A stretch of DNA of 64,000 nucleotides, from contig WPIO01000019.1 of NCBI GenBank assembly GCA_009760855.2, positions 5,746,501-5,810,500 on the forward strand. Direction: 5' to 3'. Below, piece by piece: positions 11,901 through 61,600 of the stretch. Made by a program: the position numbers and the translations under genes. This DNA is from Cristatella mucedo (taxonomy: Eukaryota > Bryozoa > Phylactolaemata > Cristatellidae). Within the stretch, counting starts at the first letter, position 1. Each line of letters opens with the position of its first letter. A model generated the notes under the pieces. That model saw nothing but the letters and a program-made list of their open reading frames with translations, did not search any database and was not told the origin of the DNA.

Positions 11901-14900
11901 ACATGCGCAATGTCAGCGCATGCATGCAAAGGGCAATTCACGCAGACAGCAAATGCTGCGATGAGAGGAGCAGGCAGGTGTTCTTGTTGGGTCTTTCCCA
12001 CTTTGACCCCTCCCCCACTTCACTCTGACCTCCGGGAGCAGATTACAAATTGGCCAGCTGCATTAGCTTGCAGTGGGGAGCTCGACACTTGGATTGCGTA
12101 CTCGAGCTACAATTGTTTTGTTGGCCGAATGTCCAGGGCAGCATCTGTTGGTCTGTGAGCCGGCTCCCTTTTCATAATATTGCAGAATCCCTTTTTGTAT
12201 CATTTCCTCCTTTTCCATTTAAATACCCCTAAGACCAAGTGAACGCTCTTTATGGGCTGTTTTAAACACTTCACACCCTTTGCCAATTGTATTATACTCA
12301 CTGCGAAAACTGTGCAGTTCAATCGAGGCCCTCAGTTGGTACCGCGTTCGCTCGCCTTGCGCAGTGCGTAGCCGCCTCGCCTGATGAGGAACAGCTACTG
12401 TGAAAGACCTTAATAACCTAGCCAATTCCACAAAAGAGAGCCCGAGGCGATTGCGTTCACATGCACGTGCAGCCGCTACGGTTGCTCATCTGAAACCCTG
12501 CTCTGAAACCAAGCGTTGCTGGAGTCCAGCGACCGGAGCCGTGCGACGGGAGACAAGCAGGCAGCCGTCTGCTCGCGGAGAGGCGGGTCCTTAGCCGGCC
12601 ACCGTCGGTGGAGAAAGGCAGACTTGAGACCCTGACTGCGGATACAGCAGTGGCATCAGCTGCTGAGCAGCTGCTGAGCCAGCTGACTTTGGACTTCGGC
12701 ATGCGCAGAAAGGCGAGCGCCACCGAGGCCGACCTTTGCTAGTAAAGACAGCAGCCTGAGCTCAGAGCCGCAGCGCCTGTGCCGCACCTTCTGTGCTTTC
12801 AGCTCAACGGCTCGCTGCAGCTCCATGCGTATGGCGGCGATCTGTCGGTTGGCGTTCTGGCTGACGCCCTCCATCTCGTCGGCGTGGGCTCGCTGCAGGT
12901 CCCTCTTTGCCGCATCGAGGTCGCGAGTGAAGGCCTCCGTCTTCGCTGCAATCTCGGTGGTCCGAGCATCGGCGGCCTCCTTCTGAGCGACTGCCAGTGC
13001 TGCCCTGTGCGCGGCCATCTGGGCCTGCAGGTCCTCGACGTGCTTGGCCTTGAGCGCCCTCGCGAGCTCCTGGAACGCGAGCCGGTGCCGCATCGTGCGC
13101 TCCTTAGCAATTTCCCTTTGAAATCGGGTGGCGCTGAGTGCAGCAAGCACCAGCACGGCGATCGCGATCAGTCGAGTGCACAGACAGACAGCAGCAGCAG
13201 CAGCGCAAGGCAGGCGGCAGCAGCGGTGGCGGCTTGAGCAGCTATAGCTAAAGAGGAAGCAAGAAATGTCGAACACAATGCGCTCGAGGTCAAAATCTGG
13301 CATCGACTTAGTTTCTGCTGCCTCGGAGCAGCCGCCCGGCTGGTGCGGCAGGCAGTTGCAGCATAGGCGGCATCGGTTTCCGTGGCATGCCACGCACCAC
13401 CACGTCAGGTGTTGCGTGGCATGCCACGGAAACCTGACGTGGTGCCCTGCTGCATGTGCCTGCGTCGATAGAAGCGGCAGGGGGGAGCATGAGCTCGAAT
13501 CTCGCTGCTTGCTCACCTTGAGCTCTTGCTCCTGGCGCAGCTGGGCCTGCCTCGCCTGCTCGTCGGAGCCGGCCCTGGCCGCATCCAGCTGCGTGCAGAG
13601 CTCGGCGACGGCGTGCTCGTGCTCGGCGAGCAGCTCGGCGATGCGCCGCTCCAGCTCGGCACGCAGCTCTGCGAGCTGCTTGGCGGCGGCGTGCCGCTGC
13701 TCGCCGAGCGCAGCGTCGAGCTGAGCGGCGCGCGCCTCCAGCTCGGCCGCTCGCGCCTCCAGGCGTCGGCGCAGCGCCTCGGTGCTTCGCTCGCTCGCCT
13801 CGCTCAGCTGTCGCTCTGCAGCCGCCCGCTCGGCGGTGGCTTGGGCGAGCAGATCCTGGCGCAGTCGCTCGCACTCGGCCCTGAAACCAAGGCGGCAGCA
13901 GCGAGATGCAGGTCGGCACTGAAGGCAATGACCAGCTGCAGGCAAGGCTGGGCGTAGCAGGCTTTTTGCATCGTTGCAAGAGTCGTGGCTGGTGTATCTG
14001 CTGGTCAGTGGATAGGAGAGAGCAAAGCGGTGCCATCATGAGGGGATTGGAACGGGAGAGGGAGACAGACAGAGAAGAAAGAGAACAGAGAGAGGTAAAG
14101 ATCAGGAGAGATTGAGAAAAATGAGAGGGGGATCGGGAGAGAAGTGAGAACAGAAAAGGAAAAGAGAGAGAGAGAGAGAGAGGCTTAAGGGACGCTTCAT
14201 GGTGCAGTCGCACGGAAGTGGTGAGCAGCAGACGGGCAGGAGTCCTACAGCCAAGCATCTTGTAGGGCCCACTGTCGCACGAAAGGCTTGCTGCAAAGCT
14301 GTCACGTGGCCCATGTATGTCAAAGCACAGCGGGAGGGCTCCGACACCACTGCTGCAGCACGATGGAGATGGCAGCTCTAGAGATAGAGAAGAGATAAAA
14401 TAACTGAGGTAGGAGCCTTATCTCCTTTGCCCCAGCAATCGCTCGCCCGATCGTCCTCCGTTGTCGCCCCGTTGAGCGAGAGCACGACGCTGGCGCCACT
14501 CACCGCAGCTTGTCGGCCCACTCGGCGTTCAGTTGAGCAGCCTGCTCGCCGAGCCGGCGCCGGACGTCGTCTCGATGCTGCTCCTCCTGCTGTAGGCCAG
14601 CGATCCTGAGCTCCTCATTTTCAGCCTGCAGCGACGTCAATACCTGGCAAGGTGCACACGCTCCCCCACTCATTCTCGTAGCCTCAGTTGCTCTGCACAC
14701 GGTCGCCGCCGACACAGAATCAGTCGTGCGACGCCGGCGTTTTTCTAGCATGCACCGTCGTGTGGAATGGCTCTCAATCTCCGAGTACGCTATTCTGGCG
14801 TGACTCGGATACTAGTAGTACTACTGAAAGCAGGGACGAACTGGTTCTGGAACTAATTAGCTAAGCGTTTCGACTGTAGCAAACGCCTGGAAATTGGTTT

Positions 14901-15511: not shown

Positions 15512-18500
15512 GAGCGGTGACACTGTGGCAATGTTCGATGCTGCATTGCTCAAAACTGCTTTTAGCACCAACGAAAGCCAAACTTGGGTCCCACTTTGGT
15601 GCCACTCAAGTGCTACCTGAGTAGCATCCAGGTCCATCCCATGCTAGCAAAAGTATGCCTGGGCTCGGCTTGCTCGGCCATCAGCCCTGCAAAGTCTGCT
15701 CTGCCTTTCTTGGAGGCTCCGTGCTAGCCAGAAATGGGCACCTGCAGCACCAGTCATTCCTCTTACCTGCAGCCTAGCAGCGAGTGTCTCTGCTGCTGCC
15801 AGTGCAGCACTGGTGCTCTTCAGTTGGTCTTCGGCAGCCAATGCCCTCTGGTGCGCCTTTGCCAGCTCTGCAGATTTAAGATCGAGCCCAGAGGTTGCCG
15901 ACAGCACGGCCTCGGTCAGTCGCTGGACCTGGAAGCACAAGAGCTGTTGCGGCTCTCAGCCTTGCTAATGCCGCCGCGACCCTTTAATACAGCTCCTCAT
16001 GTTGTGGCGACCACCAACCATAAAATTATTATCGTTGCTGCTTCATAATGGAACTCTATATGCAGGATATATTTTCATTGTTACAAATTGAACACAATTA
16101 AAGCATAGTGATTAATCACAAAAACAATAGCGGCTCCTAAGACGGAAATGCGTGTTTTCCGATGATCTTGGGCGACCCCTGTGAAAGGGTCGTTTGCACC
16201 CCAAAGGGGTCGGGACCCACAGGTTGAGAGCTGCTGCACAAGGGGATGGCATGTCTGCAACTGCAACCCGCCAGTCGGCCTTGGGGCGGCGGCGCCTAAA
16301 TGTTCTCCAGTTTGCTTCTTCGACTCTCCTATGCCTGCAGCCCTCCTGCGACTGCTTTGGTCAGGATGACAAAGCATGGGCATCAGGATTCAAATGTCAC
16401 AGAGAGAAGCCATCTGCAGTCCAAATCCTTGCCCGGCCACGTGTCTGCGAGCTGACGGTGCAGCTCGCAGACACACATGTGCAGCACACACAGCCTTATT
16501 AGCCCCGAGGGCAGCAGTAAATCAGAAGCAGTTCAAGTGCAGCTGTCTATGTCTAGAACGATCGGTTCAATGTTTGGGTACCCGAGATATCAAAAAGTAG
16601 ACATCAAAGGTAGGGGGTGGGAAATGATGCTGAGATTCAGTTGAATCAAAGCGAATGTGCAGCACAAGGACGAGTATGGCTAGCGGCTGCATGAATGAAA
16701 CAGAAAGCCGCTGCCGCCACCAAATTGCCACACGACTCGAGTTGAAACAGCTCTAGCTTGGCGTGCATAGTCAAAAGATTGCCGCGAGTTTGAATCTAAG
16801 TGGTGTGGTAGGTGGCGAGGTGACATGTCACCGGACGTGGCCCAAGCTCACCTCGGCTTCGGCGTGCACCAATTTGCTCCTCAGGTTTGCTGAGCCCGAC
16901 TCCAGATCCATAGCCAGCAGTGCGGTCTCTGCTTTGTGCTTTTCAAGCAGTTCATGCACCCGTTGTTTCCAAGTCTGCAAGTGTACCAGTGGATGAGACA
17001 AGAGCAGTTTGATCTAGCAGCTTGACCGAATGAGTGCACTGGAGCAGCATGGAGGGTACACTCTCAGCTACGGTGCAGGAAACTCGCGAGGACAAGCATT
17101 TCTGGACTACGATTGCTCAAAAGAAACTCGAAATCGGCACACGGTGACGTGTGGCATGGCCTCATCGCCTGAGCACGAAATCGCGGATGTTGCTTTGCCT
17201 TTTTTGCAAAGCGTTCGTGACGTTTACGTTACAAGTTCAGAATGCAGGGATTGCTTCGCACGAACTGCCCAGGATCAAGCTGCAAAAGTAGCCATTGCTC
17301 GCTGACTTCTCAACCATTATAATTCAGGAACGCTCAGCTCTAACTGACTTTTGACCCAACTCCGCTTTGCTCTGCATCCAATTCACTTTATTCCCTTGCA
17401 GCTTTCTTTATTCCTATCCTGTATTCCCTTGTCGAAGACGTTCTCAAGTGGATGGCTACTAACTTCCTGAAGCTTAACACCTGCCAGACCAGCCTAATAG
17501 TTATGAGAAAGCCTACTGTCACCATCGAGCTGGAGGACCTCACCTTCAAAATTGGTTAATGTAGCATCACTCCATTGACGTCTGTTCGTAGTCTGGGCAT
17601 GCTCATCGTTTGATGAGCAGCACATTGCCTCTACAGTCAAGTCAACCTGTTTTCAGCTGTGGAACATGGCCAAATCAGGGCGTGCTTAGCCAGGTGTACG
17701 ACACGCAAATTAGTTTAAGCGTTTGTGAAATCGCGTCTAGATTACTGCGATTCCTTTTATTCTGGACTCCTAGATTGTGCCCCTAATCGTCTGCAACTGA
17801 TTCAAAACTTAGCAGGTTGTCTGACCTGTCTTCACTGGAGTTTCTGCCACATCACACCACTTCTGCCTGAGCTTCAACAGCTCTAAATCAAGCATCGAAT
17901 CTACTGCAAGATCCTCTCTCTGCCTGGCTTACAAGACGCTTCACTCGATTGCAACAGCCTAACTGCATGTGAGCCATGATGGCTCACTAGGTAAGGTGAT
18001 TGCTTTTCTCGACCTCAGCCCCGAGGTCATAGTTTCGAATCCTGTGGTGGGCAGTCCTTTATCGCCGCTGCAAGTGGTGGTGATAGCCGTAAAGGCTCTT
18101 CTGTCGCTATACAAAAGAGGCTGTTAAATCAGCTTTTCTTTTTTTAACTATCCAACATCCTTGCTCCTTTAGAGTGCTCCTATACCTGTGCCTGCACTCG
18201 CCTATCAGTCGTCTTCCCAGTCCGTGCACTAGATTGAAATCGATCCTTCAGCTCGTATGCAACGAAAGTGTGGGACTCACTTTCAGCTATGGTAACTACT
18301 TGCAATGACCATGCATCACTTAAGCCTCAGCTAAAGACGCATTTGCTCCAATCAGCGTTCCCTTCACCTCAGTAAGCTTGTCTTTTTTCTATTCCGGTGT
18401 GGTTTGCATGCAGACCCATGCATGATTCAATGCTGTTATTAACTAGGGTAAGCACAACTCTTAGGGTAACTAGGGTAAGCACAACTCACTCGCGATTGCG

Positions 18501-21500
18501 TTTAGACATACCTGTATGTCTAAACGTGATAGGCACGAGTGTACAGCACCATCCATAACCTACGACTCAATGACACATGACATTAAAGTTGTGCCATTTC
18601 TGCTCATGCTGCAATTTGTAAAGTGCCTGGATAAATGTTTGGTTCTTTGAGCATGCCATACAGAGGACTTGTTATTATTACTATCATTGCACTTCAAAAA
18701 GTAGCACTCTATTAAAATGGCCAACCTTTGTGCAACAAGCAACATGTTACAAGAATAGCAATGTGGTTGCCTTAATGCCACTTAATCTAACCGCTGCTAT
18801 CAACACTATCGACCAATCAGTTTCTGCACGGGCATTTTCATGAGTCTCGACGTTTCGAGTAGCATGCTTAATTAAGGGTTTCAGACATAATGCCGATCTG
18901 ATGAAAGGATAGGTAACTCGCCTGACAGTCTGCTGCCGACAGCACTCCTGCAGCAGTCCCCCACAGCTCTGCTATCGATCCCCCTTTTTGTATTTACAGT
19001 GCATCTTTAGGTCTGGCCATTCAGTAAGGCAACGTCGAATGGCACTTGTGTCCTAATGATAACAAACTCTACTGCCTGCTAGTCTGCTTAGGCAATGGCC
19101 ACCTAAACGTACCATTTTCTCCTGCTTCGTTGAAGAGACCCTAATACAGCAGCTAAATAAGAAAATAGTATGCAAACAGGTACGGACGGACATACAGAGC
19201 TGAGTCAACAGTCGGTATCTAGAAATATATGTGCATTCATAAAATCACACACTGAATTAGCAAAGCTCGCCAGAAGAGGCTGGAGGGAAGCAGCAAAGCA
19301 GAGCCGTCGCCGAGTCACCTTTTCCAGCTGATCCAGCTCTGCAGTCGCCCTAACTCGAGCCTCTTCGGCCTCCGCCTTCAGTCGAGCAACTTCAGCTAGC
19401 AGTTGCTCTTGCAGGATGCGATGCCGCTCCATCTCTCGCTCGGCGTTTGCCTGGACTTGGGCAAGCTCAGCACTATGCTGCTTGTGTAATGCCGTCACCT
19501 CTGAGCGTGCACCCTCTACCATCTGCGAAAATTGGAAGCCCAGTTACATAAAGTCAGCATGTGAATCAATACAGCGATATCAAGTCGAGCGTCAGCGTGA
19601 AAATCTAATGTAGTCGATACACTGTATCCACTAGTGTGGGAGGTGAGAGAGATCAGCTAGTAGGAGCCACCCACTGGTGGCATGGATCAACAGTATTCCA
19701 GAATTCAGGACGAACAAAAGTAAATACTTTTGCACAAAACGTATTCCAAAAACTCACAAATCTCAAGTGTCTCAGTCTGTCTCTCTTGCTTGCTCTCTGT
19801 CTCTCACGTCTTTCTCTGTCTGCCATTCATACAGCCTTCCATCCCTTGGCTGTCTTTCTTTATTTCTCTGTCTCCCTGCCTGTATCAACGTCCTAGTCGG
19901 TCTCTGTTTTGTCTATATATCTGACTCGCCCAATTCCTCTCTGTCCCTCTCAGCCTCCACTCCTCCCTCTTTAGATCACTCACTCACTTATTTTCTCTCT
20001 CCCGGTCTCAGCATGCTAACGGACTTAGAATATCGGCCGATCAGCGAAGGTATTAAGGGTATATGTTGAGGAAATACTGAGAAGATTGTACCAACAATCG
20101 AATAACTGTTTAGGTAACCTTTTATAACACAGTCACGCTTGAAATGGGATCTAATTTTATACAATTTCCACATAAAATGAAAGCCTTAAAATTATACAAA
20201 ACTAATCTTAACCGGAAGTAAACTGGAAGCAAAGCATCCAAAAGCAAAACATTTACCGATCTCTGCATCATATACAAATTGTGACCCAACTTGCTGAATC
20301 GTGGTACCTCGAAGTACCTGTTTGCAGGCTGTTGAGATACGGGCTTGTGACGTTTAGACAGCTTCGTTTACTACAGTGTAGCTTTGTCCCTTGTAAATTC
20401 CATAACTTGACTCAACCAATATTAGAAGAATCAACATGAAATTTTAAATGTCAGTTCGGTTCTCTTTTACACCACCGCAGAATTTCATTCCTGATTTCGG
20501 CTCGATAGGTTTTGCTATACATGTCATCGTACCTGTGCGTCCTTGAATTTTATGATATGCAATTGCGGGCATATATAGCAAAAGTTATCTAACCGAAATC
20601 ACAGATTAATTCTTGCAGAGGTGCGCAAGCAGAGCTGAACTCACGTTTCCAATTTCACGTTGGTCCATCGAGTATTGCCAAATTATGGAATTTACAAGGC
20701 ACAAAGCTACACTGTAAATGAAGCTACCTGCTACTAAAAGTCACAAGCACGTACCTCATCAAGCTGCAAACATGTACCTCGATGTACCAAGGTTCAACAA
20801 CTAAGAAAACTAGTGGTGTATGATTCAGAGATCGGTAAATTTTTTGTTTGTAGATAAGTTGCTTTTGGTCAACTTCCGGTTTAGGCGAGGTTTCCCTGAT
20901 CGCTTTTTAATGTTTTCATATCGCTTGGAAATCTTCAAAACTCCCTATCCCATTTCCAACATGTTTGTGTTTTAAAAGGTATCAGCAAAAGCTATTCGCT
21001 TGTTGGTGCAATCTTCTTAGTGTTTTCTTGACATTTACCCTTAAACTACTTTAACGGTTAATAAATAGCGCTGAGGCCAATCAACAGAAAAGCATCAGCA
21101 AAACAATAAAGGCAAGTTTACATTTAGGAAAAGTATAATACAAAAATTACCTACAGCAAATACTTAAGTACAAGAAGTATTGCTTCGGTATGTTGCTAAG
21201 AAGTTCCAATCGGAAGTTTGAGCTAACCATTTGACATATACCTGGGTTTCGTCCAACAGGTTGGTCATATGATTCATATCGGTGGCCATCTTCTGGAGCT
21301 CATGATCACAAATTATGTCAGTCCTACTGACCTTGCTGTGCGCTTGCGGACCATTTCGTATCATTGCACAATCTCGTTTACTTTTCCTGTTCCGTCTTAT
21401 GTGCAGGTTAGTATTGAGTTTTTCCAGCGACGCAACTTAAAAATGCATCGATGCTGAGAAATTTTTGGAATCTGTTTGTGAAGCAGATCTTCTTGATCTG

Positions 21501-24500
21501 CCCAGGTTCCGCCGACAGCTTCGATATCCTCATTGAAATAGTAAGCTTAAAAATTAAGAGTGTTCCCAACGAGAACGCTGTCCACGTACAGAGTCGACGA
21601 GATTCCTTTCAATTTACAAAAACCTTCAAACGATGCACCGTGTAAATCGCAGGCTTTAAGGCCGCTTTTGGAAGCCTGGGTCTGGCGACTAGCTATCTAG
21701 ACTAGACGATCTAGCCAGTTTCAAGGCTTTTTCCAGGGAGCTTGGAAAATCCAGGGCTTCTTTTTTTCACTCAAAAACTGAACTGTCAGTCAGACCCCCC
21801 TAACAATATTCTTAAGATTGAATGATTCGCTTGCCAGCTCTTGACAGGTCTCACTCCCTGGATACTTACGGTTCAGCCAATGAGTTTACCACCTTCTTGA
21901 AAAAGCTGGACACATTCGTGCCTGCATAAAGACACCTCCTTCTAAAGCAAGCATTAGTCGCAACATGTGACCTTAATAAATTTTCCGAGGTATATGTATA
22001 CGAAGTGCCTAAATTAATAAGGTCGAGTAAGAAAAAACTCGTCTCCTGAAGACTATGTACCATCCACTCTGTGGCCTCCATTGGCAGAGAAACCAGATGT
22101 CCAGCCATAACTGTCAGATGGTGAATACTTCTCTGGATAACGACGGGTTTGTTCTAGTGTCTTTCGAATCGGCCATTCTTCGACCGCTACTTAAAACACT
22201 ACTTAAACGCTACTTAAGCAGCCTTGATTGGAATAAAAGGCTCTAGCAAAATATCGCCCAGTCTCCCGTCTACTTTTCTGTCCAAGATTTTCAAAGAGAT
22301 CGTCAGTAAGTAGCTTGTACAACACATTGAGTAGACTGCATTGTCAGATAGTTTTCAATCACAATTCAAGTGATAGCACCACACTAAAGCTCTCCTCCGT
22401 GTGACCAACACCATCCTCAGCAGTAACGATGACAGCAATGTTACCTTCATTCTTTGGCTCCAGCATACACCAGGCTAAGCATCGTACCACCTGTTTTCGG
22501 AATCTAATTGTTTACCTAAACCTCATATGAACCTCAAATCATCATTATTATAATTATTACCGACAAGGCCCTGCTTGATCTACCAGCTGCGTTCGACACT
22601 ATTGATCACAAATTTCTACTTGAACGATCGATAACAACAATCGCTCTTGGTAGAAGCGGAACTAGTATGGTTCAAATCGTACTGGTCCGATCTTTTGAAT
22701 CCGTGTTGTGTGGTGGTCAAGTCTCATCCAGCAGGCAATTCACATGGGGAGTTCCGCAAGGATCCATTCTCGGTTCTATGCTATTCTTCATGTATACCGA
22801 GTCTCTGAGAAAAGCAATTCGGGCCTACGGAGTTGGTTATCACTTCTATGCCGACGATATCCAGCTATTTGTCGTCTGAACCCTCGGAATCTGCTGCAGC
22901 GAACTGATAAACTGAATGCTTGCCTTGTAGACATCCTATCCTGTATATTGATCAATTTCCTTAAACTAAACGGCGATACAACCGAACTCGTAGGGCACCC
23001 GAAGCGTGCAGTTGGACTAAGAGACTTTGCTCCTCTAACTGATGATACTGTTGTGCAACCGTCACCGTGTGCTTGGAATTTGGGCGTCCTCTGTGATAAC
23101 TGCTTACATTTTGAAATATCACGAAGAAGATCTCTGTCGCGCCATTACTTTCAATCCCTGTCCAAGATTAGGTATCGTCAAAAACGGTGGCTGGCTAAAA
23201 ACTCCAACTAGCTCTTTGGTTCAGTCCAGGCTGGACTTCCGTTTTGGCTGGGCTGCCGACAAAATCCATTAGGGGTCTGCAGCTGGTGATGAATACGGCA
23301 GCAAGGTAAGTCAAGAAATCACGGGGGTACCGTACAACGATGTGTCACCTTTGCTGAAGGGGCGGAAATTACTCCGGTTGATAGGCGGATGTAGAGCAAA
23401 ATTTCTTCAACTCACAAGGCTCGGCCATGGCTTGACCCCGTCATACCTAGCTAGGTACAGCTACACTAGATTTAGCCTCTTCATGCCCTCAGTTCCTATA
23501 CAGAAAATAAATTAGCTGCTCCATTATCACGCTAAAAAACCCTAGGCAAAGTCTTTAAGCTTTTGGTCTGCAGGTTCTTGACTGCGGTCATTGACTGCAT
23601 TGACTTCCACAATTTTTAAGCGACGAAATCTACTCTCCTGCTGCCTCTCATTTCCAGCCGTCCTGAGCCGATACGTCCATTGCTACTAACTTGCTCGACT
23701 TCCGTCCTGACTAAGCTATGCTTCTTACTTTCTCTTTGCTTCGTGAGATAATAATGCTTTAATAATATAATTCATTTATATAACGCCTTAAGAGATCTTA
23801 ATCTCTATTCAGGCGCTTCACATATGCCACAGGGCTCGAGCCCGCGACCTCAGCCAAATCTTGGTCGGGGCGAGCACCTTAACCACTGGCCAAACCAGAG
23901 ATTAAGTCTGTTGGCTACAGCATGCGTACCGAAAGCCACCTAGGCTTTGAGCGAACTATAGAAAGCTCTCTCAATACCTACTTAGTCTTTGTGGCTTTGT
24001 GGAGTTATAGGCGGAGATACATTCCATTGCAATATATGTGTGCAGTTGAATGGTTGTCGGTCCTCTGGTCAAGCCCTTCGGGTATAAGGTACTTCGGGGT
24101 TCGGTCTCAGGCCCGCTTCTTTTCGCTATCAGTACTCTACCTCCAGCCGATGTCATGGCCAAATACAAACTCTCCTTTAATTTCTATTTCGATGACACCT
24201 ATCGTTGGACTCTTCTAAGCTTGCCCTGCATCCGACGCACGTATTCTGCTTGCAGCCTGCATCGTCGATGTCGTTCCCGATGGCCACTAAATCCCCGAAG
24301 CTTTACGACAATGAAACTAATCTAATAGTTATAGGACAACCTGTGTCTCCCTCAAGTGCACGACTTCAACCTTAAGATTAATTCATCTAGCATCACTCCG
24401 GTGACGTCAACTCGTAATCTGGGCACGTTACTCTAAAAAGAATGTGCCATTAGATGGGCACATTGCCTCCACTATCAAGTCGGCCTATTTTGAGGTGAGA

Positions 24501-27500
24501 AACATTGCAAAAATCAGGACGTGCTTGCAAGAGCTCGGCAGTCAAACTTTTTAGCAAGTTTGTAACATCGCGTCTAGAGTATTGCATTTCCCATTTGTTC
24601 AGGACTAAGGCATCATGCCTTTAATTGCCTGCAACTGGTGCGAAATTCGGCAACTCGTGTGCTCTGTTATCAACGGCGTAGTTGCCACATCACAATCATT
24701 CTCTCTGAGCTTCACTGGCTCACTTATCGAGTATCAAATCGACTTCGAGATCCTCGGGTTTGGGCCTGCAAGCCTGCTTCACTCGCTTCGAGTAGCCTGC
24801 CTATCCGAACCCCTTGCTCTTCCATACTCCACTCTGCTCACCAACTCTGCTCCTCCTCGGCCTCGAGTCGTCTCACCATTGCACTAAATCATTGAATTAC
24901 ATTGGTTGAAATCTATCGGTGATCAGGCTTTCAGCTCGTATTCGCCGAAAGTCTGGAATACGACTCCGGATTCTGTCATCACCAGCAATGACCTTGCATC
25001 ATTTAAGTCTCGGCCAAGAATTCAGTGAAGTGCCGCTCAGCTTTCCGTGCACGTCCCCAATGGACGTGTCTATTTTGGTCCCTGTTTGCTCTGCATGCAG
25101 GACCGGAGCATGATTCAGTGCATGTTACTAGCCAGGGCTCTACTAATCGGCGAGTGCTCAGCGTGTGCATTTGCATGTTGGTCTAAGCATGATACTCGTT
25201 TAATTTTGTAATTTGTCAAAGCACGATATCGTGCATGACATTAATTCTTGGACATGGCTTCTCTTGTAGTGAGTTGCAAAGCGCCTGAATATGGATTTAG
25301 TTCTAATAGTAGGGCTTATTATTTTAATATCGCGAAGAAATCTCACTACTCACCCACGTAGTGAATATTGAGAGCATGTACGTGAAGCACGGCTTTTACT
25401 AGCGGTTTAAATAGAAGGGAACAAGTCAAGTTTTGTAATAGACGGTCTCATTGGTAGATGCACAGAAGGAGCCCCAGCGATTCGATTCGCATTCAACTCA
25501 GCGTTTCAGTGTTTCTGCTGATGCAAGCTTTGCCTCTCGTTTTAGCTCAATGCCGTTGTCTAAATTCGTGTGGTCTACACACCTGCTGGTAACAGCTTAC
25601 TCCGTGCGGGCCGGTGGATCGCACGCTGTGGCACCGAAATAATGTGTGCCTATCGTAGCTCAAGTCGCTTGTACACAGCAGCAGGATAATGGGGGGGGGG
25701 GGACAATGCTCAAGCCACCCTTTACGGCCGCCCAGTGACGATTCTCAGAGGCTTTCCCCGGGACTATCCGGAAGCGGCAGTCGTGGATCGTAGCAAAGAT
25801 GACAGCCACGTTCGGAGCCGTAATGCTGGCTAGTTTCTTATGATGATACGTGCCTCGTGACGCAAACGAACTTCCCTATTTCTCTCAGCTGCGACCAGCC
25901 TAGATAGAATGGAAGCCGCTGCAGCAAGTGCACCTGCTCACCTGCTCCAGTGCAGCCACGCGGGAGCTCGTCTCCGATGCGGCTCCACGGCTGTGAGACA
26001 GGAGCTCGTCCCTTTCGCTCTCGAGACTCGCCAGCTTTCGGGACGACGCCGCCAGGTCGTCGAGCAGCTGCTGCACGCGCTTCTGCAGAGCGCCATGCAG
26101 TGCCTCCGACTCAGCCAGACGAGCTTAAGAAAGGAATTATTTGTCCTCAAATGAGCATCCAGCGGAGCCGGTGCAGCCAAACGCGCGCACAGCCTGGCAG
26201 ATGCAACGAGCTGTGACGGCCCTTGTCTAATTGAGGAGAATAAAGGAAGAAAAAGAAAGCGTGCTCTTATACGCTTCCTCTAGCTCTTATAGGTTTCTGA
26301 AGATCGTGAGCTGGTGATCGAAATCCCTATCGCCGGAAACTGTAACGCGGTAGGAATTGTGAGACACAGCGGCTACATGCCTGCCGGAGCGTGATTAATC
26401 TGCGTAGTATACCGAAGCAAGACGAAGGACGAGTGACCAGTTGTCTTAGTGTCGGCCTTCTAGTTACGCCTTATAGAGAGTAGGAGGAGAGGAGGAGTGG
26501 ATACTTTTTGTACAGCCTCGGAGTTATGCAATGCGGCAACTTGAAACGCAATGGCTCGGAAAGCAAATTCAACAGCGAAGCCGTGTCTAGTTGCTACCGA
26601 GAGTGCTGTGCGATGCAGGCAAGCGTTGCGTGACAACCAGCTCCACGGCCGGCGATATTTGCGCTATTTGGCGCCAAGCTAGCAGGCAGTTTTCGGAGCG
26701 AAACGACGGGTGGCTGCTGCCACTGCTTGCAGTGGCATGCATTGCGACTTTCTTACAATTAAGAGGACCGCAAAGCCAGCGCTAGTTGCCGCAGCACCGA
26801 CGTCAGCACAGCTCGGGCTAAAAGAGAAACCTTACCCGACTGAGCACGAAGCTGGGCCGCCTGAGACGAGCTCCTCTCGCCGGCCTCTGTCAGATCGGAA
26901 GCGGTCTTTTCGTATAGCGATCTCAGCTGCTCTGCAGCCTTATTCGTCTCGGCCAGCTGCGGTTCAAAATTAGAAGCCCGCTAAGCCTGCTGCGAAACTG
27001 ACGCTTTCGGGAGCTGATATAGAGGGACCTCAACAGCGGGGCAGGCAGCGGCAGCAGCAGCAGCGGCGGCTCGAGCGGCTGCAGCTCACCCGAGTCTCGG
27101 CGGTAGCCAGGCGTGCGCCGGCGGCTCCTTCGGCCGCTCTGCTCCGCTCGAGCTCGGCGCGCAGCCCGCTCTCGCCCTCCTCGGCCGAGCCGAGCCGCTC
27201 GACGAGCTCGTCGATGCGCCGCCGGTGCAGCGATTCCTGGAGCTGCGCGTCCTTGAGCAGCCTGTCGCACTGCTCCTGCAGCAGCCGCGCCCGCTCGTCG
27301 GCTGTCCTGCTCAGGGCGCCGCGAGCCGCCTCCAGCTCCCGGGCGTGCAGCGCTCGCGCTGCGTCGAGCTTCTGCTCGCACTCGGCGGCCAGTTCGCGCC
27401 TCTCCTGCCGCTCGCGGTCGAGCTCGGCGGCGGCGGTGGCGAGCTCGGCCGCGTGAGCGCTCCGGGCTCGCTCCAGCGCGCCGTCGGCGTCCGACGACAG

Positions 27501-30500
27501 GGCGCTCTGAGCCGCACGGAGCAGCTGCTCCGTCTCTATCTGGTGCGCCTTTCGCATGTCCGCGATGGCCTCGGCCTTGTCCCTCTCGATGGCCTCGAAC
27601 GCTCGCCTGAACTTCGAGACGCTCACCTCGTAGTCGCTCTGCACCCTGGCCAGCTCCTTGGACAAGCCGACGACGGACTGCGCGTGCTCGGCCCTGAGCG
27701 CCGACTCGCGCTCTGCGCTGTCCCGCCTGACGAGCTCCGCGTCCTGCAGGAGCCGCTTGCGCTGCTTCTCGTGCTCGTCCACGCACAGCTCGAGGCCCTC
27801 TATCCTCCTCCTGAGCTCAGCTTCAGAATTGACCTTGGCCTTGAAGGACTCGAGTTTCGTCTTGGTGTCGGCCATGAGCTGCTGCACGTCCTTGTCGTGC
27901 TGCAGCTGAATGGCCTTGACGATGTGCTCGTGCTCGTCATTCTTCGTGTTCAGCGCATAAATGACCTGTTTCGGGGCGGTTGGAGGGGGGTAAGGAGCGA
28001 ACGTGGTTGCACAGGGGAAGGCTGCGCCATGTCAGCAAAAGCCGAAGCGGAAACGATTGAGCGACAGGGCCGGGCTAATTCGGATAAAGTTGGAATGAAG
28101 TCTCGAGGAAAAAAAGAATAAAAAGGACGCACAGTGAGTGCAAAAGTAGCTGCTTGTGCCTACGCCTGCAGCCGGACTAGCGGCGCCTTAACGAATGGGG
28201 CGGGGCTTCTTCGCTCGCGTCTTCGCTCTCGCTGTTAAGGAAAAGCTAAGAAATGAAGACGAGGCAATTCGGCAGTGGTTGGAGAGTTAGACTTCGGCCC
28301 AGCGACAGCCGACCGCAACCGTCTTAGCGTGAAGCAACTCTGACGAATGAAGCGGTTTTCAGAAGAACTCGCTGTGTGGTGGAGTTACAGAGATTATTAC
28401 TATCTCTTTAATTCACGCATTGCAAATAGAACACGTACCGGAGCTGCGTTTCGGTAAGCGTACTGCGCTGCCATAAAAAAGAATCAAAGGTGAGCGACCT
28501 TATATGAAAATGACGGGGAACATTCTGCTGCACAACCCAGCCTGGTGTCCGGACTGCACGTGAAAACAATACGCGTCCCATTGTACTGCGCCAACACAGC
28601 TCGACGATTAAAATAACGTCCGTCGTAAAACTGTTCAGCGAACGGCTGACCGCGAGTGGCACTCGCTCGCTCTGCAGGTCAAGCATTTCTGCGGGTCTCC
28701 TCGCGGAACGAGCAAAAGTATCAGCACGATGCTGCGACGGGTTCGCAAAACTTTGCAGATGGAAAAATTAGCACAATGCATGCAAAGATCGTCGTGTGAT
28801 TCCCTAATTAAATGCAGCGGTTAAGGTGCTCGCCCCTACCAAGGGCTCGCCGAGGTCATGGGCTAGAGCCCCGTGGCATACGTGAAGCACCTGGATATAG
28901 ATTAAGTTCTCTTAGGGCGCTACACAAATTAATTACATTGTTATATTATCATATTATTAAATCACCCATAAGCCGAAAAATGTCGCATTAAAAACCGCCA
29001 GATCAGGCATTTCCTAACTATAGCACTATCTGCATTTCAATGCAGGCGTGCTCCTACGTAACTTATAGCATACAACGTGCCTGTGTCGACACAAAACTAT
29101 GCAACATGCAGGACTACTTTACCTTTCATAGGTACGCGTGGGTTTTTGTCTGTGACTCTATACGGTAATGAGCACTACCAGGTTACCGTGTTGCGATGGG
29201 GGGGGGGGGAGGTTGCTATTGTGCGCTCGAGCCCGGAGCGGCTTTTGGCTTCGAGTGCGAAAGCAGCCGAAAGAAGAGATCTCACGTGACGAATAAAGCC
29301 GGAAATGCTTGGCTGGATCAGCAAGAGGACATTCAAGGGAGAAAATACCAGCGTTACCCTGCGTCACAGAGGTGAGAGGTGAGAGGCGCTCGCTCTTCAC
29401 GACCCGGACCCAGCAAAGCCAAAGCTTCTGTCACGTCAACAACAATCTTTACGAGCGATGGCTAATTTATGGTTCGGATAGAACGGAAGGGCTAAAAATA
29501 GGAGGCTGAAAATAGTACAGCAGTCTGCTATGAGCGAGAAGAGGTCAAGCCGCAAAGGACCTTGCGGGTCAAGGTCACAGTGAGAAGTATCCGCTTAGTA
29601 TCCGCTGATCAGCCGACGAAGCCAACGAAAAAATCCTTTAAAAATCGTCAATCGGGAATGTGACTAAATATCTCGGATTTCAAGACCAGCCTGGTGGCCG
29701 CATTTAGCAGCAACTACAGAGACTTAGCGGCATTGACGACCGCCCAACCAATAGCAGTAGCTTAGCTTCCAGAGAGGAGGCCATGGAATCTACCTATGGT
29801 CTACAGCTAGCTGCCACAGCTGCTAATACCTAATCCCCGACTGAGATTGAACGGCTGCGGTAAATGGCTGCGAAAAGTGCCTTCTGGATGAAATTCTCAG
29901 GTGGTTATCAAAAAGGAAACGCAGCTTACGACGTTCGTCAACGATCGCACTATGGCTACTCCAACTAGGAGCGCAAAGTCATTAATGCAGCTAGGTATTT
30001 AAGGTTTTCAATGAACAGCAGCAAAGGTCATTTGGTTGCAAGAAAGTTGGTCGACGTGCAGGAAATGGTGTCAGCATGAAAGGCATTCAGTATCAATCAA
30101 TGCAGCTACACCTCGAGGCTTTAATGACTAATGCAAATGGGCATCGTTGGCATGGTAGTTAGTTCATCCGATGCCAACGTCTGAATTACTTTTTTCGGGA
30201 GGCGCAGTATGGATGAAGAACATCGAAGGGGTCCAGCACAAACGCGAAAGAGCACCTCACGCTAGATGAGAGTGCATGGTAGGAACTAGACACGGTCGGA
30301 CTCAGGTCACAGGGTGAGACTCGTGTCACAGGGCGACTCTGGTCACGGGCTCCGACTCAGATCGCGTCGTCTTTTTGATCTTTCGATCTTTTCTTTTCGA
30401 TCTTTTGAGGACGAGGATCTTGTCGTCGACGGTGCCCGAAGTCGCCGAGACGTCGAGCACGACTGAGCGTCGACTGACGCTCTCCGCATTATTTCGCTCC

Positions 30501-51644: not shown

Positions 51645-51826
51645 TTGCTTTGTCGTGCAAGCTGCTGCCTGGCAGCTCGTGAAGAGTGACCGTAACGTTT
51701 CGAGGCAGCTCGCAAGTGCATTATCATTAAAATCAGCATGGTGGTCAGGGTCCTCCAGCGAGCTGCCTCGAAACGTTGCGGTCACTCCTCACGAGCTGCC
51801 AGGCAGCAGCTTGCACGACAAAGCAA
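51645..51826. repeat. long near-perfect hairpin, 69-nt arms
   Basis: 51645-51713 is the reverse complement of 51758-51826 with two mismatches, separated by a 44-nt loop. Arms include TTGCTTTGTCGTGCAAGCTG and GAGGCAGCTCGC. No terminal duplications or transposon ends are evident, and no known miRNA is recognised. Confidence 0.93.
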
Positions 51827-59449: not shown

Positions 59450-61600
59450 CTCCATTACGCCCCCTCTGAGTAAAGCGATTGCGGAATCGCAACATGTGAC
59501 CTTCCTTAAAAGATTGTCCGAGGCTTCAGCATGCGATGTGGCTACCTTAACAAAGTCTAGTAAAAAAAAATGCTCGTCTCCTAAAGACCCTATACCATCA
59601 TCGCTGTGGTCTTCTTCACTGGCAGACCAACTTAGCCCTGCCACAACCAAGATTTTTAATGCTTCTTTGGAAATAGGGGTCGTACCCAATGTGGTTTTAG
59701 TTAATTGATGACACTGCCCCTGATCGCTGTACGAGTGGGCTGTGACACTCGATGTGGTAAGCAGCCGGGCCGTGCGATTAGTGGTTTGTTGCCAAGGGAG
59801 TCGGGGGACTCTGGTGGGCGAGAGGGGCGAAGAGAGTCGTGCTTCGCCCTGCTCCGTGTGTAGGAGGAATAAACTGGTGGTGTTGCTCATCGGCTGGCGT
59901 TTTGTGCCATTCGAGACAATAATTCGAGCTACACCCAAGTCCTTCAAATCGGCAATCGTTAGACCGATACTTAAAAAGCCTGGATTACATACAGAGGTCC
60001 ATGTAAACTATCCCCCAGTTTCCCTTCTTCCTTTCTGCTTAAAGATTCTTGAAAAAATTGTTGCTAAGCAGCTTGTTTCACATATCGAAAATAATGAAAT
60101 GTCAGAAACATTTCAATCAGGGTTCAAGAAGCAGCACTTCACTGAAACTGCTCTCCTCCGTGTTAACATTGACATTCTATGTGGCAACAATAACGGGAAT
60201 GTCACTGCCCTAGCTCTGCTAGATTTATCAGCTGCCTTCGACACTATTGATCACGATGTTCTGCTCGAATGGTTGAGAACAATGGTCGGTCCGGAAGACG
60301 AGACACTGGCGTGGTTCAAATCGTACTTGTCTGATCGTGTTCAATCCGTGTCGTGTGGGGGTCAGGTCTGAGACACGAGAAGGTCACCTGTGGAGTCCCT
60401 CAAGGGTCGGTACTTGGTCCCTTGCTGTTCTCCATTTATACACAACCTCTGGGAAAAGTGATTAAGGCACATGGAATAGGATATCACTTCTATGCTGGCG
60501 ATACTCAATTGTATTTGTCATTCAAACCTTCGGAATCTGCTGCGACAACTGAGAAACTGAACGCTTGCATTGCCGATATCCGATCCTGGATGTCGGAAAA
60601 CTTCCTGAAATTAAATGATGATAAAACCGAACTGCTTCTCATAGGACACCCTAAGCGTGTGGCTGGACTAAAAGGCTTTGCTGTTCTAATAGGTGATGCT
60701 ATTGTGCGACCTTCACCACGTGCTCGAAATTTAGGTGTCGTTTTCGACAACTGCCTCAATTTTAAAAGCTCCATTCAGAAGACTGCTTCTGCAGCTAGCC
60801 ATCACGTCCGATCCCTATCCAAGACTAGGAGCTGTCTCCCACAGTGACTTGTAAAAAATTAACTAGCTCCTTAGTTCTGTCTCGGCTTGATTATTGTAAC
60901 TCCCTTTTGGCTGGGCTACCAACAAAAGCAACTATGCCACTGCAAATGGCGATGAATATCGCTGCAAGGCTAGTTTTCAAGTCCCACAGGTTTGAACATG
61001 TGTCTCCTTTGCTAAAAGAGCTAGAATGGCTGCCGGTTGAGCAACGGATACAGAGCAAAGGTCTTACGCTGACCCACAAGGCCCGCCACGGCTTGGCTCC
61101 TTCGTACCTTGCTGAACTGCTGCACCGATTTCAGCCTCCTCGTGCCCTCAGGTACTGTATGGACAGTAAATTAGCTGTTCCATTCTTCCGCTTAAAGACC
61201 GTTGGTGACAGAAGCCTTAGCTCTGCAGGTCCTAGACTGTGGAACTCGCTTCAACAATTCTTACGAAACGACAACTACTCTCCTACTGCCGACTATGGCT
61301 CATTCTTTACAGCGGTCCTGAGCTGCTGCCACTTCCATGCTGCTCAGTACCTCAAATGCTCTCCTGACTCTGCTATGCTTCCTACTTTCTCATTGTTGCG
61401 TGAGATGAAGTCTGTTGGCTACCGAATGCTTACCGAAAGCCTCATAAGCTGTGAGTGCACTATACAAAACTCTCCAGCGTAACACCCACTTGGTCTTTGT
61501 GGCTTTGTTGAGTTACAGACGGAGATACATTGCATTAGGAAAGTCGGCGTCTGTACGAAGAAAAGTAGATAGTGTAAACGCAGCTTTATCCAGCCTCCTG
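59450..61600 (+). mobile_element. LINE-A copy, best preserved, interrupted by a solo LTR
   Basis: Three successive frames cover the RT and C-terminal domains: ALLDLSAAFDTIDHDVLLEW (block with catalytic Asp), [54 protein letters not shown] and GPRLWNSL. Two frameshifts (near 60350 and 60845) break the protein. The catalytic box reads YAGD instead of YADD. A 244-bp LTR is inserted at 59690. It belongs to the CR1/L2/Jockey-like non-LTR elements. No endonuclease domain is seen, so the copy is 5'-truncated. It is inactive. Confidence 0.9.
59690..59933. mobile_element. solo LTR with 5-bp target duplication
   Basis: A 244-bp insertion begins TGTGG and ends CTACA (TG...CA rule) and is flanked by CCCAA at 59685-59689 and 59934-59938. 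An internal GAATAAA (59867) could be its polyadenylation signal. LINE-A coding sequence stops at its left edge and resumes at its right edge. No internal retroelement genes remain. Confidence 0.82.

What the first reader, a model, noticed from the sequence alone, without database searches (positions are those of the whole stretch)
15944..16236. SPIN-like hAT transposon: signature of transfer between animal phyla
The interior and both ends agree along the whole length with the SPIN consensus as I remember it, including unusual blocks such as CTCATGTTGTGGCGACC and AAAGCATAGTGATTAATCAC. SPIN is known for near-identical copies in tetrapods and has been reported in a blood-feeding bug and a pond snail. 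Finding it beside a diverged, invertebrate-type FAM184 gene adds a host whose identity matters.
Basis: partly seen in the sequence, partly recalled or inferred. Interest (0 to 1): 0.9.

Follow-up and report, generated by a model that had tools for sequence, protein, structure and literature searches.

The report
SPIN-family jumping gene in an invertebrate
A short, dead copy of what looks like SPIN, a jumping gene known from mammals, reptiles and frogs, sits in a gene of a mollusc-like invertebrate together with dozens of sister copies, which is best explained by DNA having crossed between distant animal groups, probably tens of millions of years ago.

Summary
A 293-bp non-autonomous hAT element lies at 15944-16236 between 8-mers matching at 7 of 8 positions. 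It is one of at least 65 places of its family in the host genome. The majority consensus of 40 of those copies is 296/304 identical to the SPIN_NA consensus as I recall it, including a stretch of which the window copy lacks about 30 bp, so the recollection is not an echo of the window. The copies have hAT/Buster-type target duplications, and one locus with broken transposase pieces carries a SPIN end. The host is not a vertebrate: its COX1 reads AGA/AGG as serine, and a mitochondrial gene block, as I read it, follows a molluscan order. Two host proteins are 30-35% identical to vertebrate relatives, so near-identical non-coding DNA points to horizontal transfer. Copies average 8.5% (non-CpG) from their consensus, about 11-90 My by assumed rate. 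The copy ends 15 nt before a predicted FAM184 exon, in the 3' splice site. SPIN transfer across phyla is known; the host and subfamily look new. No library consensus was available; host species, donor and route are unknown.

The parts
15936..15943 (.). left target site duplication CACAAGAG
   Evidence: 7/8 identical to 16237-16244
15944..16236 (+). non-autonomous SPIN-like hAT element (MITE), decayed copy
15944..15962 (+). left terminal inverted repeat, decayed
   Evidence: inverted repeat 15949-15962 with 16221-16234, 14 nt, 86%; family TIR CAGTGG.../CAGCGGTTCTCAACC
16046..16057 (+). junction of an internal deletion: net 30 bp against the host consensus, 33 bp against recalled SPIN
   Evidence: the undeleted stretch scores as present in 30 of 40 aligned copies
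16130..16172 (+). internal hairpin block (CCTAAGACGGAAA...TTTCCGATGATCTTGG), a host-subfamily feature not in the recalled SPIN_NA
   Evidence: RNA-parameter fold of 16129-16180, -16.8 kcal/mol, no shuffled control; block scores as present in 30 of 40 copies
16222..16236 (+). right terminal inverted repeat (GGTTGAGAGCTGCTG)
16237..16244 (.). right target site duplication CACAAGGG
15767..15928 (-). predicted FAM184 coiled-coil exon, 162 nt, phase 0-0, 54 aa; its 3' splice site was struck by the insertion
   Evidence: AG|GTC ... CAG|GTAAGA; open frame runs on into 14504-14643. Not itself hit by tblastn with recalled human FAM184A: rests on splice signals, phase and position inside the gene
14504..14643 (-). 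next predicted FAM184 exon
   Evidence: splice signals and frame; not itself hit
27030..28031 (-). FAM184 N-terminal domain, open frame
   Evidence: PF15665, E 4.7e-43; tblastn 27087-27968, E 3.9e-40

Best explanation
15944-16236 is a dead, internally deleted member of a non-autonomous SPIN (Space Invaders, hAT superfamily, Buster group) family. SPIN DNA entered the germ line of this mollusc-like invertebrate, or of a recent ancestor, by horizontal transfer. It was then copied to at least 65 places by a transposase supplied in trans that acts on the short terminal repeats, excises and pastes the element, and duplicates 8 bp of target. The one candidate transposase source found has decayed. In the window the copy landed in the polypyrimidine tract of a FAM184 intron, 15 nt upstream of a predicted exon. 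Shown here: family membership by sequence (against a recalled consensus), termini, TSDs, copy spread, non-vertebrate host, one broken transposase locus with a SPIN end. Inferred: transfer, trans-mobilisation, age, and that splicing of the exon now relies on element sequence.
For: Match of the window copy to recalled SPIN_NA. 40 host copies, on 28 contigs (counted by hand), gave a 321-bp consensus 296/304 identical to recalled SPIN_NA, including a stretch the window copy lacks. TSDs: of 30 copies complete at both ends, 21 have flanking 8-mers with at most 2 mismatches, against 61 of 870 cross-paired controls; in those 21, T at position 4 in 39/42 and A at position 5 in 41/42. Tree mostly star-like, 94.5% of length on tips; recalled SPIN on a branch of 0.032 against a median of 0.125. 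47 core sites against 0 for the reversed control; union with the aligned copies 65 places. One locus carries pieces of a Buster-like transposase (58% over 202 aa of a recalled protein) and a SPIN end, 205 bp at 89%. Host non-vertebrate: AGA/AGG read as Ser in COX1, AAA as Lys. FAM184 30% identical to recalled human FAM184A over a 294-column alignment; PPP1R3-like protein 63/179 identical to a solved PPP1R3C chain.
Against: The SPIN consensus is recalled; no Dfam/Repbase copy was at hand, and a text search for six of its stretches in papers found none. The window copy's own TSD lacks the TA centre, its left terminus is decayed, and at unshifted ends it counts as a TSD miss, 5 mismatches, one of the 9 misses among 30. 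Mean K2P to the host consensus is about 0.10, so the invasion is not young. Mean pairwise K2P among copies is 0.263, more than twice the distance to the consensus, and three copies (L030, L034, L040) form a supported subgroup, so a single simple burst is not proved; alignment noise may add to this. The transposase locus lacks a recognisable second terminus in the 3.4 kb read, and 58% identity shows that the recalled Buster protein is not this family's own.
Confidence: 0.87

Rival explanations
1. It is an old, vertically inherited Buster/hAT MITE of invertebrates that only shares short conserved ends with SPIN.
For: hAT termini can be conserved; Buster1 of planaria has a roughly similar terminus, CAGGGCTTCTTAAAC (PMC4298943, passages); copies are about 10% from their consensus and 26% from each other by K2P.
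Against: Identity to recalled SPIN runs through the non-coding interior, 296/304; vertical descent would need neutral DNA nearly unchanged since the protostome-deuterostome split while FAM184 fell to 30% protein identity. 94.5% of tree length is on tips.
Confidence: 0.04
2. It belongs to a sister family of SPIN (OC1, hAT1 or an undescribed relative) that also moved horizontally, not to SPIN itself.
For: 30 of 40 copies carry a hairpin block absent from recalled SPIN_NA. OC1 is known from planaria (46 copies, 8.6% from consensus) and a triatomine bug (1286 copies, 6.4%) (PMC3621081, table in passages). I have a faint recollection of a similar block in another vertebrate hAT.
Against: 296 of 304 aligned columns match recalled SPIN_NA. 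By recollection SPIN and OC1 are separate families with different interiors.
Confidence: 0.08
3. Contamination or misassembly: vertebrate DNA in an invertebrate assembly.
For: SPIN is best known from vertebrates.
Against: The copy lies inside one gene between its own TSDs, with FAM184 sequence on both sides. The 40 aligned copies lie on 28 contigs; the 20 whose contig lengths one search lists lie on contigs of 1.1-24.8 Mb. 30 of 40 share a block absent from recalled SPIN.
Confidence: 0.01

Closest known systems
SPIN_NA (Space Invaders, non-autonomous; mouse URR1-type, recalled) of tetrapods, Rhodnius prolixus and, by recollection, Lymnaea stagnalis
   Same: Interior and termini (296/304 to the recalled consensus), size class, TIR CAGYGGTTCTCAACC, 8-bp TSD centred on TA, MITE lifestyle
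   Different: Host subfamily has a hairpin block of 27 nt where recalled SPIN has 14 nt, is 3 nt shorter in another stretch and has a few substitutions; at least 65 places; different host, since the mitochondrial gene order is not that of pond snails (recalled)
OposCharlie1 (OC1)
   Same: hAT MITEs with repeated horizontal transfer, also in invertebrates; comparable copy number and divergence in planaria (PMC3621081, passages)
   Different: Different family by recollection; no OC1 sequence could be compared here
Buster1/Buster2 of planaria, insects and bats (PMC4298943, passages)
   Same: hAT Buster group with MITEs and horizontal transfer
   Different: Buster1 TIR CAGGGCTTCTTAAAC differs

Membership tests
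SPIN (hAT, Buster group) | High nucleotide identity to the SPIN consensus along the element | tested here: met
   Host consensus 296/304; window copy 18 differences in 249 columns. Yardstick recalled, not a library entry.
SPIN (hAT, Buster group) | Terminal inverted repeats CAGNGGTTCTCAACC (motif recalled) | tested here: met
   Host consensus ends CAGTGGTTCTCAACC and, reverse complement, CAGCGGTTCTCAACC. Decayed at the left end of the window copy.
SPIN (hAT, Buster group) | 8-bp target duplication, Buster type nnnTAnnn (type recalled) | tested here: met
   21 of 30 complete copies (control 61 of 870); T4 39/42, A5 41/42. Window copy: 8 bp, 7/8 match, but AA at the centre.
SPIN (hAT, Buster group) | Autonomous partner with a Buster transposase sharing the ends | tested here: inconclusive
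   One locus (L077) has broken pieces of a Buster-like transposase and one SPIN end; the other end was not found. Pfam found nothing in the two pieces scanned.
Horizontally transferred transposon | Identity across species far above that of host genes | tested here: met
   97.4% non-coding DNA against 30% and 35% protein identity; the SPIN and FAM184 yardsticks are recalled, and only two host genes were compared.
Horizontally transferred transposon | Patchy presence among the host's relatives | not testable with these tools
   No other eukaryote genomes are held; patterns in viral and prokaryote contigs and blastn of phages and plasmids gave no match.
OC1 | Identity to the OC1 consensus | not testable with these tools

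The most novel reading that the evidence does not exclude
A SPIN subfamily with its own hairpin block spread in a mollusc-like lineage after its own transfer from, or to, vertebrates. One insertion was tolerated inside the 3' splice site of FAM184, so that the branch point, and possibly an in-frame 5-codon exon extension (LLCFQ), now come from the transposon insertion.
Probability: 0.3. Interest if true: 0.7.

Novelty: new member of a known kind. Interest (0 to 1): 0.55.

Why it matters
SPIN is a leading case of DNA crossing between animal phyla. By recollection its invertebrate hosts so far are a blood-feeding bug and a pond snail. A further host without an evident blood-feeding link, carrying its own subfamily, widens the network of carriers and could help to tell donors from recipients. 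The insertion in a splice site shows directly how such transfers can touch host genes.

Tried and rejected
Rejected: lamprey or other vertebrate host (mitochondrial AGA/AGG = Ser; window CpG observed/expected 0.89). Rejected: the hAT family found through Pfam PF05699 as the SPIN source, because blastn of the host consensus against its 30 fetched loci gave no match. Led nowhere: exact patterns in viral and prokaryote contigs, phages and plasmids, paper searches (listings only) for space invaders with lamprey, SPIN with lamprey, SPIN with snail, SPIN transposons with Lymnaea and for letters of the recalled consensus, a search meant to help name the host, molluscan haemocyanin in the host genome (no match, but no control rang either), 18S rRNA in the host genome (not completed). 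Gilbert 2010 and Gilbert 2012 are not held; what I say of them is recalled or taken from passages of later papers. The count of 2042 candidates is a loose first look and not a copy number; one search shows 47 core sites.

The 40 aligned copies are the 40 scored, chosen by similarity to the window copy, so mean divergence may be underestimated. 40 of 40 went into the divergence mean. 10 of 40 without both ends were dropped before the TSD count; the window copy stayed in and is a miss there. On checking, a deletion I had first put at about 44 bp was corrected to 30-33 bp.

Full report
The observation. Positions 15944-16236 hold a 293-bp sequence flanked by CACAAGAG and CACAAGGG. The local alignment score is 311, against a maximum of 30 in 157 other pieces of the window. 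Over 249 gap-free columns there are 12 transitions and 6 transversions, K2P 0.077. The window copy is net 33 bp short of the recalled consensus in one stretch and carries a hairpin block that the recalled consensus lacks. Blastn finds no other copy in the window.

The family in the host. The host genome (572,011,866 bp, 688 contigs) was searched with the window copy: 40 matches were scored out of 2042 loose candidates, on 28 contigs by my count from that table. All 40 were fetched and aligned. Their majority consensus is 321 bp. It is 296/304 identical to the recalled SPIN_NA (K2P 0.027), and it contains the stretch that the window copy lacks (39 nt in the host consensus, 42 in the recalled one, 9 in the window copy). 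A recollection shaped by the window could not have foreseen that stretch, so this is an independent check on the recollection. Mean K2P of the 40 copies to the consensus is 0.098 (sd 0.025); non-CpG mean p is 0.085, CpG sites 0.148. In the tree 94.5% of the length is on tips and recalled SPIN has a branch of 0.032 against a median of 0.125; one subgroup of three copies is supported, and mean pairwise K2P is 0.263, more than a simple star would give. A 26-nt core with up to three mismatches occurs 47 times, against 0 for the reversed control. Together with aligned copies that lack the core, that is 65 distinct places, a lower bound.

Mechanism. Terminal repeats CAGTGGTTCTCAACC / CAGCGGTTCTCAACC and 8-bp TSDs point to cut-and-paste by a hAT transposase. 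Of the 30 copies complete at both ends, 21 have flanks with at most two mismatches, against 61 of 870 cross-paired controls (7%). In those 21 the duplication is centred on TA: T4 39/42, A5 41/42. That this is the Buster-type target is recalled. The window copy is one of the 9 misses unless its decayed left end is shifted. The elements have no transposase of their own and would need one in trans. With a recalled Buster-like transposase as query, one of 73 scored matches (985 candidates) stood out at 57%; the others are at 29-35%. That locus holds broken pieces of a transposase and, at its 3' side, 205 bp of the family's end at 89%, followed by ATCTAAAT, which would fit a TSD; no left partner or second terminus was established in the 3.4 kb read. 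A different hAT family, many of its copies with open frames of about 640 aa and 98.9-99.8% identical to L066 in the longest alignments, may have been active recently, but its 30 fetched loci show no blastn match to this one.

The host. COX1 (PF00115, E 2.1e-132) on contig C688 reads with AGA and AGG as serine, one at a site I recall as conserved, and AAA as lysine at sites including one that I recall as conserved. By the code tables as I know them this excludes vertebrates and fits neither the echinoderm nor the flatworm code. I read the gene block nad1-nad6-cob-nad4L-nad4-nad5 on one strand from the translations, by eye; it is the order of the second block described for molluscs in PMC11488289 (passages). 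Other parts of the order differ from that scheme. I take the host as a mollusc or close lophotrochozoan; the species is unknown, and a search for molluscan haemocyanin gave nothing, without a positive control. Window GC is 50.7%, which by recollection fits neither Rhodnius nor Lymnaea. FAM184 is confirmed by Pfam, E 4.7e-43, and is 30% identical over a 294-column alignment to a recalled human FAM184A. A PPP1R3-like protein is 63/179 identical to a solved PPP1R3C chain.

Transfer. Non-coding transposon DNA at 97% identity between this host and the recalled tetrapod family, beside genes at 30-35% protein identity, is not compatible with vertical descent. Non-CpG divergence corresponds to about 11, 23, 41 or 90 My at assumed rates of 8, 4, 2.2 or 1e-9 per site per year; the host's rate is unknown. 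Published transfers of such elements span about 45 to 15 My (PMC3621081, passage). SPIN in Rhodnius is described in PMC11614815 (passages). The pond snail record is recalled from Gilbert 2010, which is not held. In the listings I saw no paper reporting SPIN in another invertebrate host; that does not show that none exists.

The insertion site. On the minus strand the element ends 15 nt before a predicted 162-nt FAM184 exon (15767-15928, phase 0-0), whose frame runs on into 14504-14643. That exon was not hit by tblastn with recalled human FAM184A; it rests on splice signals, phase and its place between exons that were hit. The two flanks without the element read as an ordinary pyrimidine-rich acceptor. 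The former upstream intron sequence is now about 300 bp away, so the branch point is probably inside the element. The element's last three bases form an alternative AG that would add five codons in frame; another AG would add eight. These are inferences from sequence; no RNA was available.

Verdict. This is very probably a SPIN-family element and a further case of its passage into an invertebrate. The kind of event is known. The host, the subfamily and the splice-site insertion are what appears new here.

Noticed in passing
15767-15944 (-): SPIN copy sits in the 3' splice site of a predicted FAM184 exon; its terminal CAG makes an in-frame alternative acceptor (+15 nt, LLCFQ).
   Followed up: partly
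L047-L076 (host genome): A young-looking hAT family: 62 of 138 PF05699 matches at 73 bits or more (150 of 766 candidates scored); the other loci are 98.9-99.8% identical to L066 in the longest alignments, many with open frames of about 640 aa; no blastn match to the SPIN-like consensus.
   Followed up: partly
9568, 15131, 17968, 33255, 34630, 36460, 55755, 58983, 61769: A dispersed family with a tRNA-like 5' part (SINE-like by eye), about nine full or partial copies in the window; ARAGORN reports no tRNA.
   Followed up: no
20053-21044; 51645-51826; 13348-13463: Palindromic stretches: 992 bp at 70%, 182 bp at 83%, 116 bp at 80% to their own reverse complement.
   Followed up: no
59724-61482 and 22568-23749: Two copies (70% alike) of a non-LTR retrotransposon; reverse transcriptase domain by Pfam in the first, none found in frame 22699-23211 of the second.
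   Followed up: no
G000:C688 (L045, L046, L078): Mitochondrial contig of 21 kb with a repeated stretch (same open frames at L045 5633 and 7748) and nad2, cox2 (read by eye) and rrnL on the strand opposite to the other protein genes I read.
   Followed up: partly
1-64000: CpG observed/expected is 0.81 over the FAM184 body and 0.72 at 48-56 kb with raised TpG/CpA, and 0.99-1.04 in 28.1-44 and 46-48 kb; the PPP1R3-like frame itself is 0.96. This would fit gene-body methylation.
   Followed up: partly
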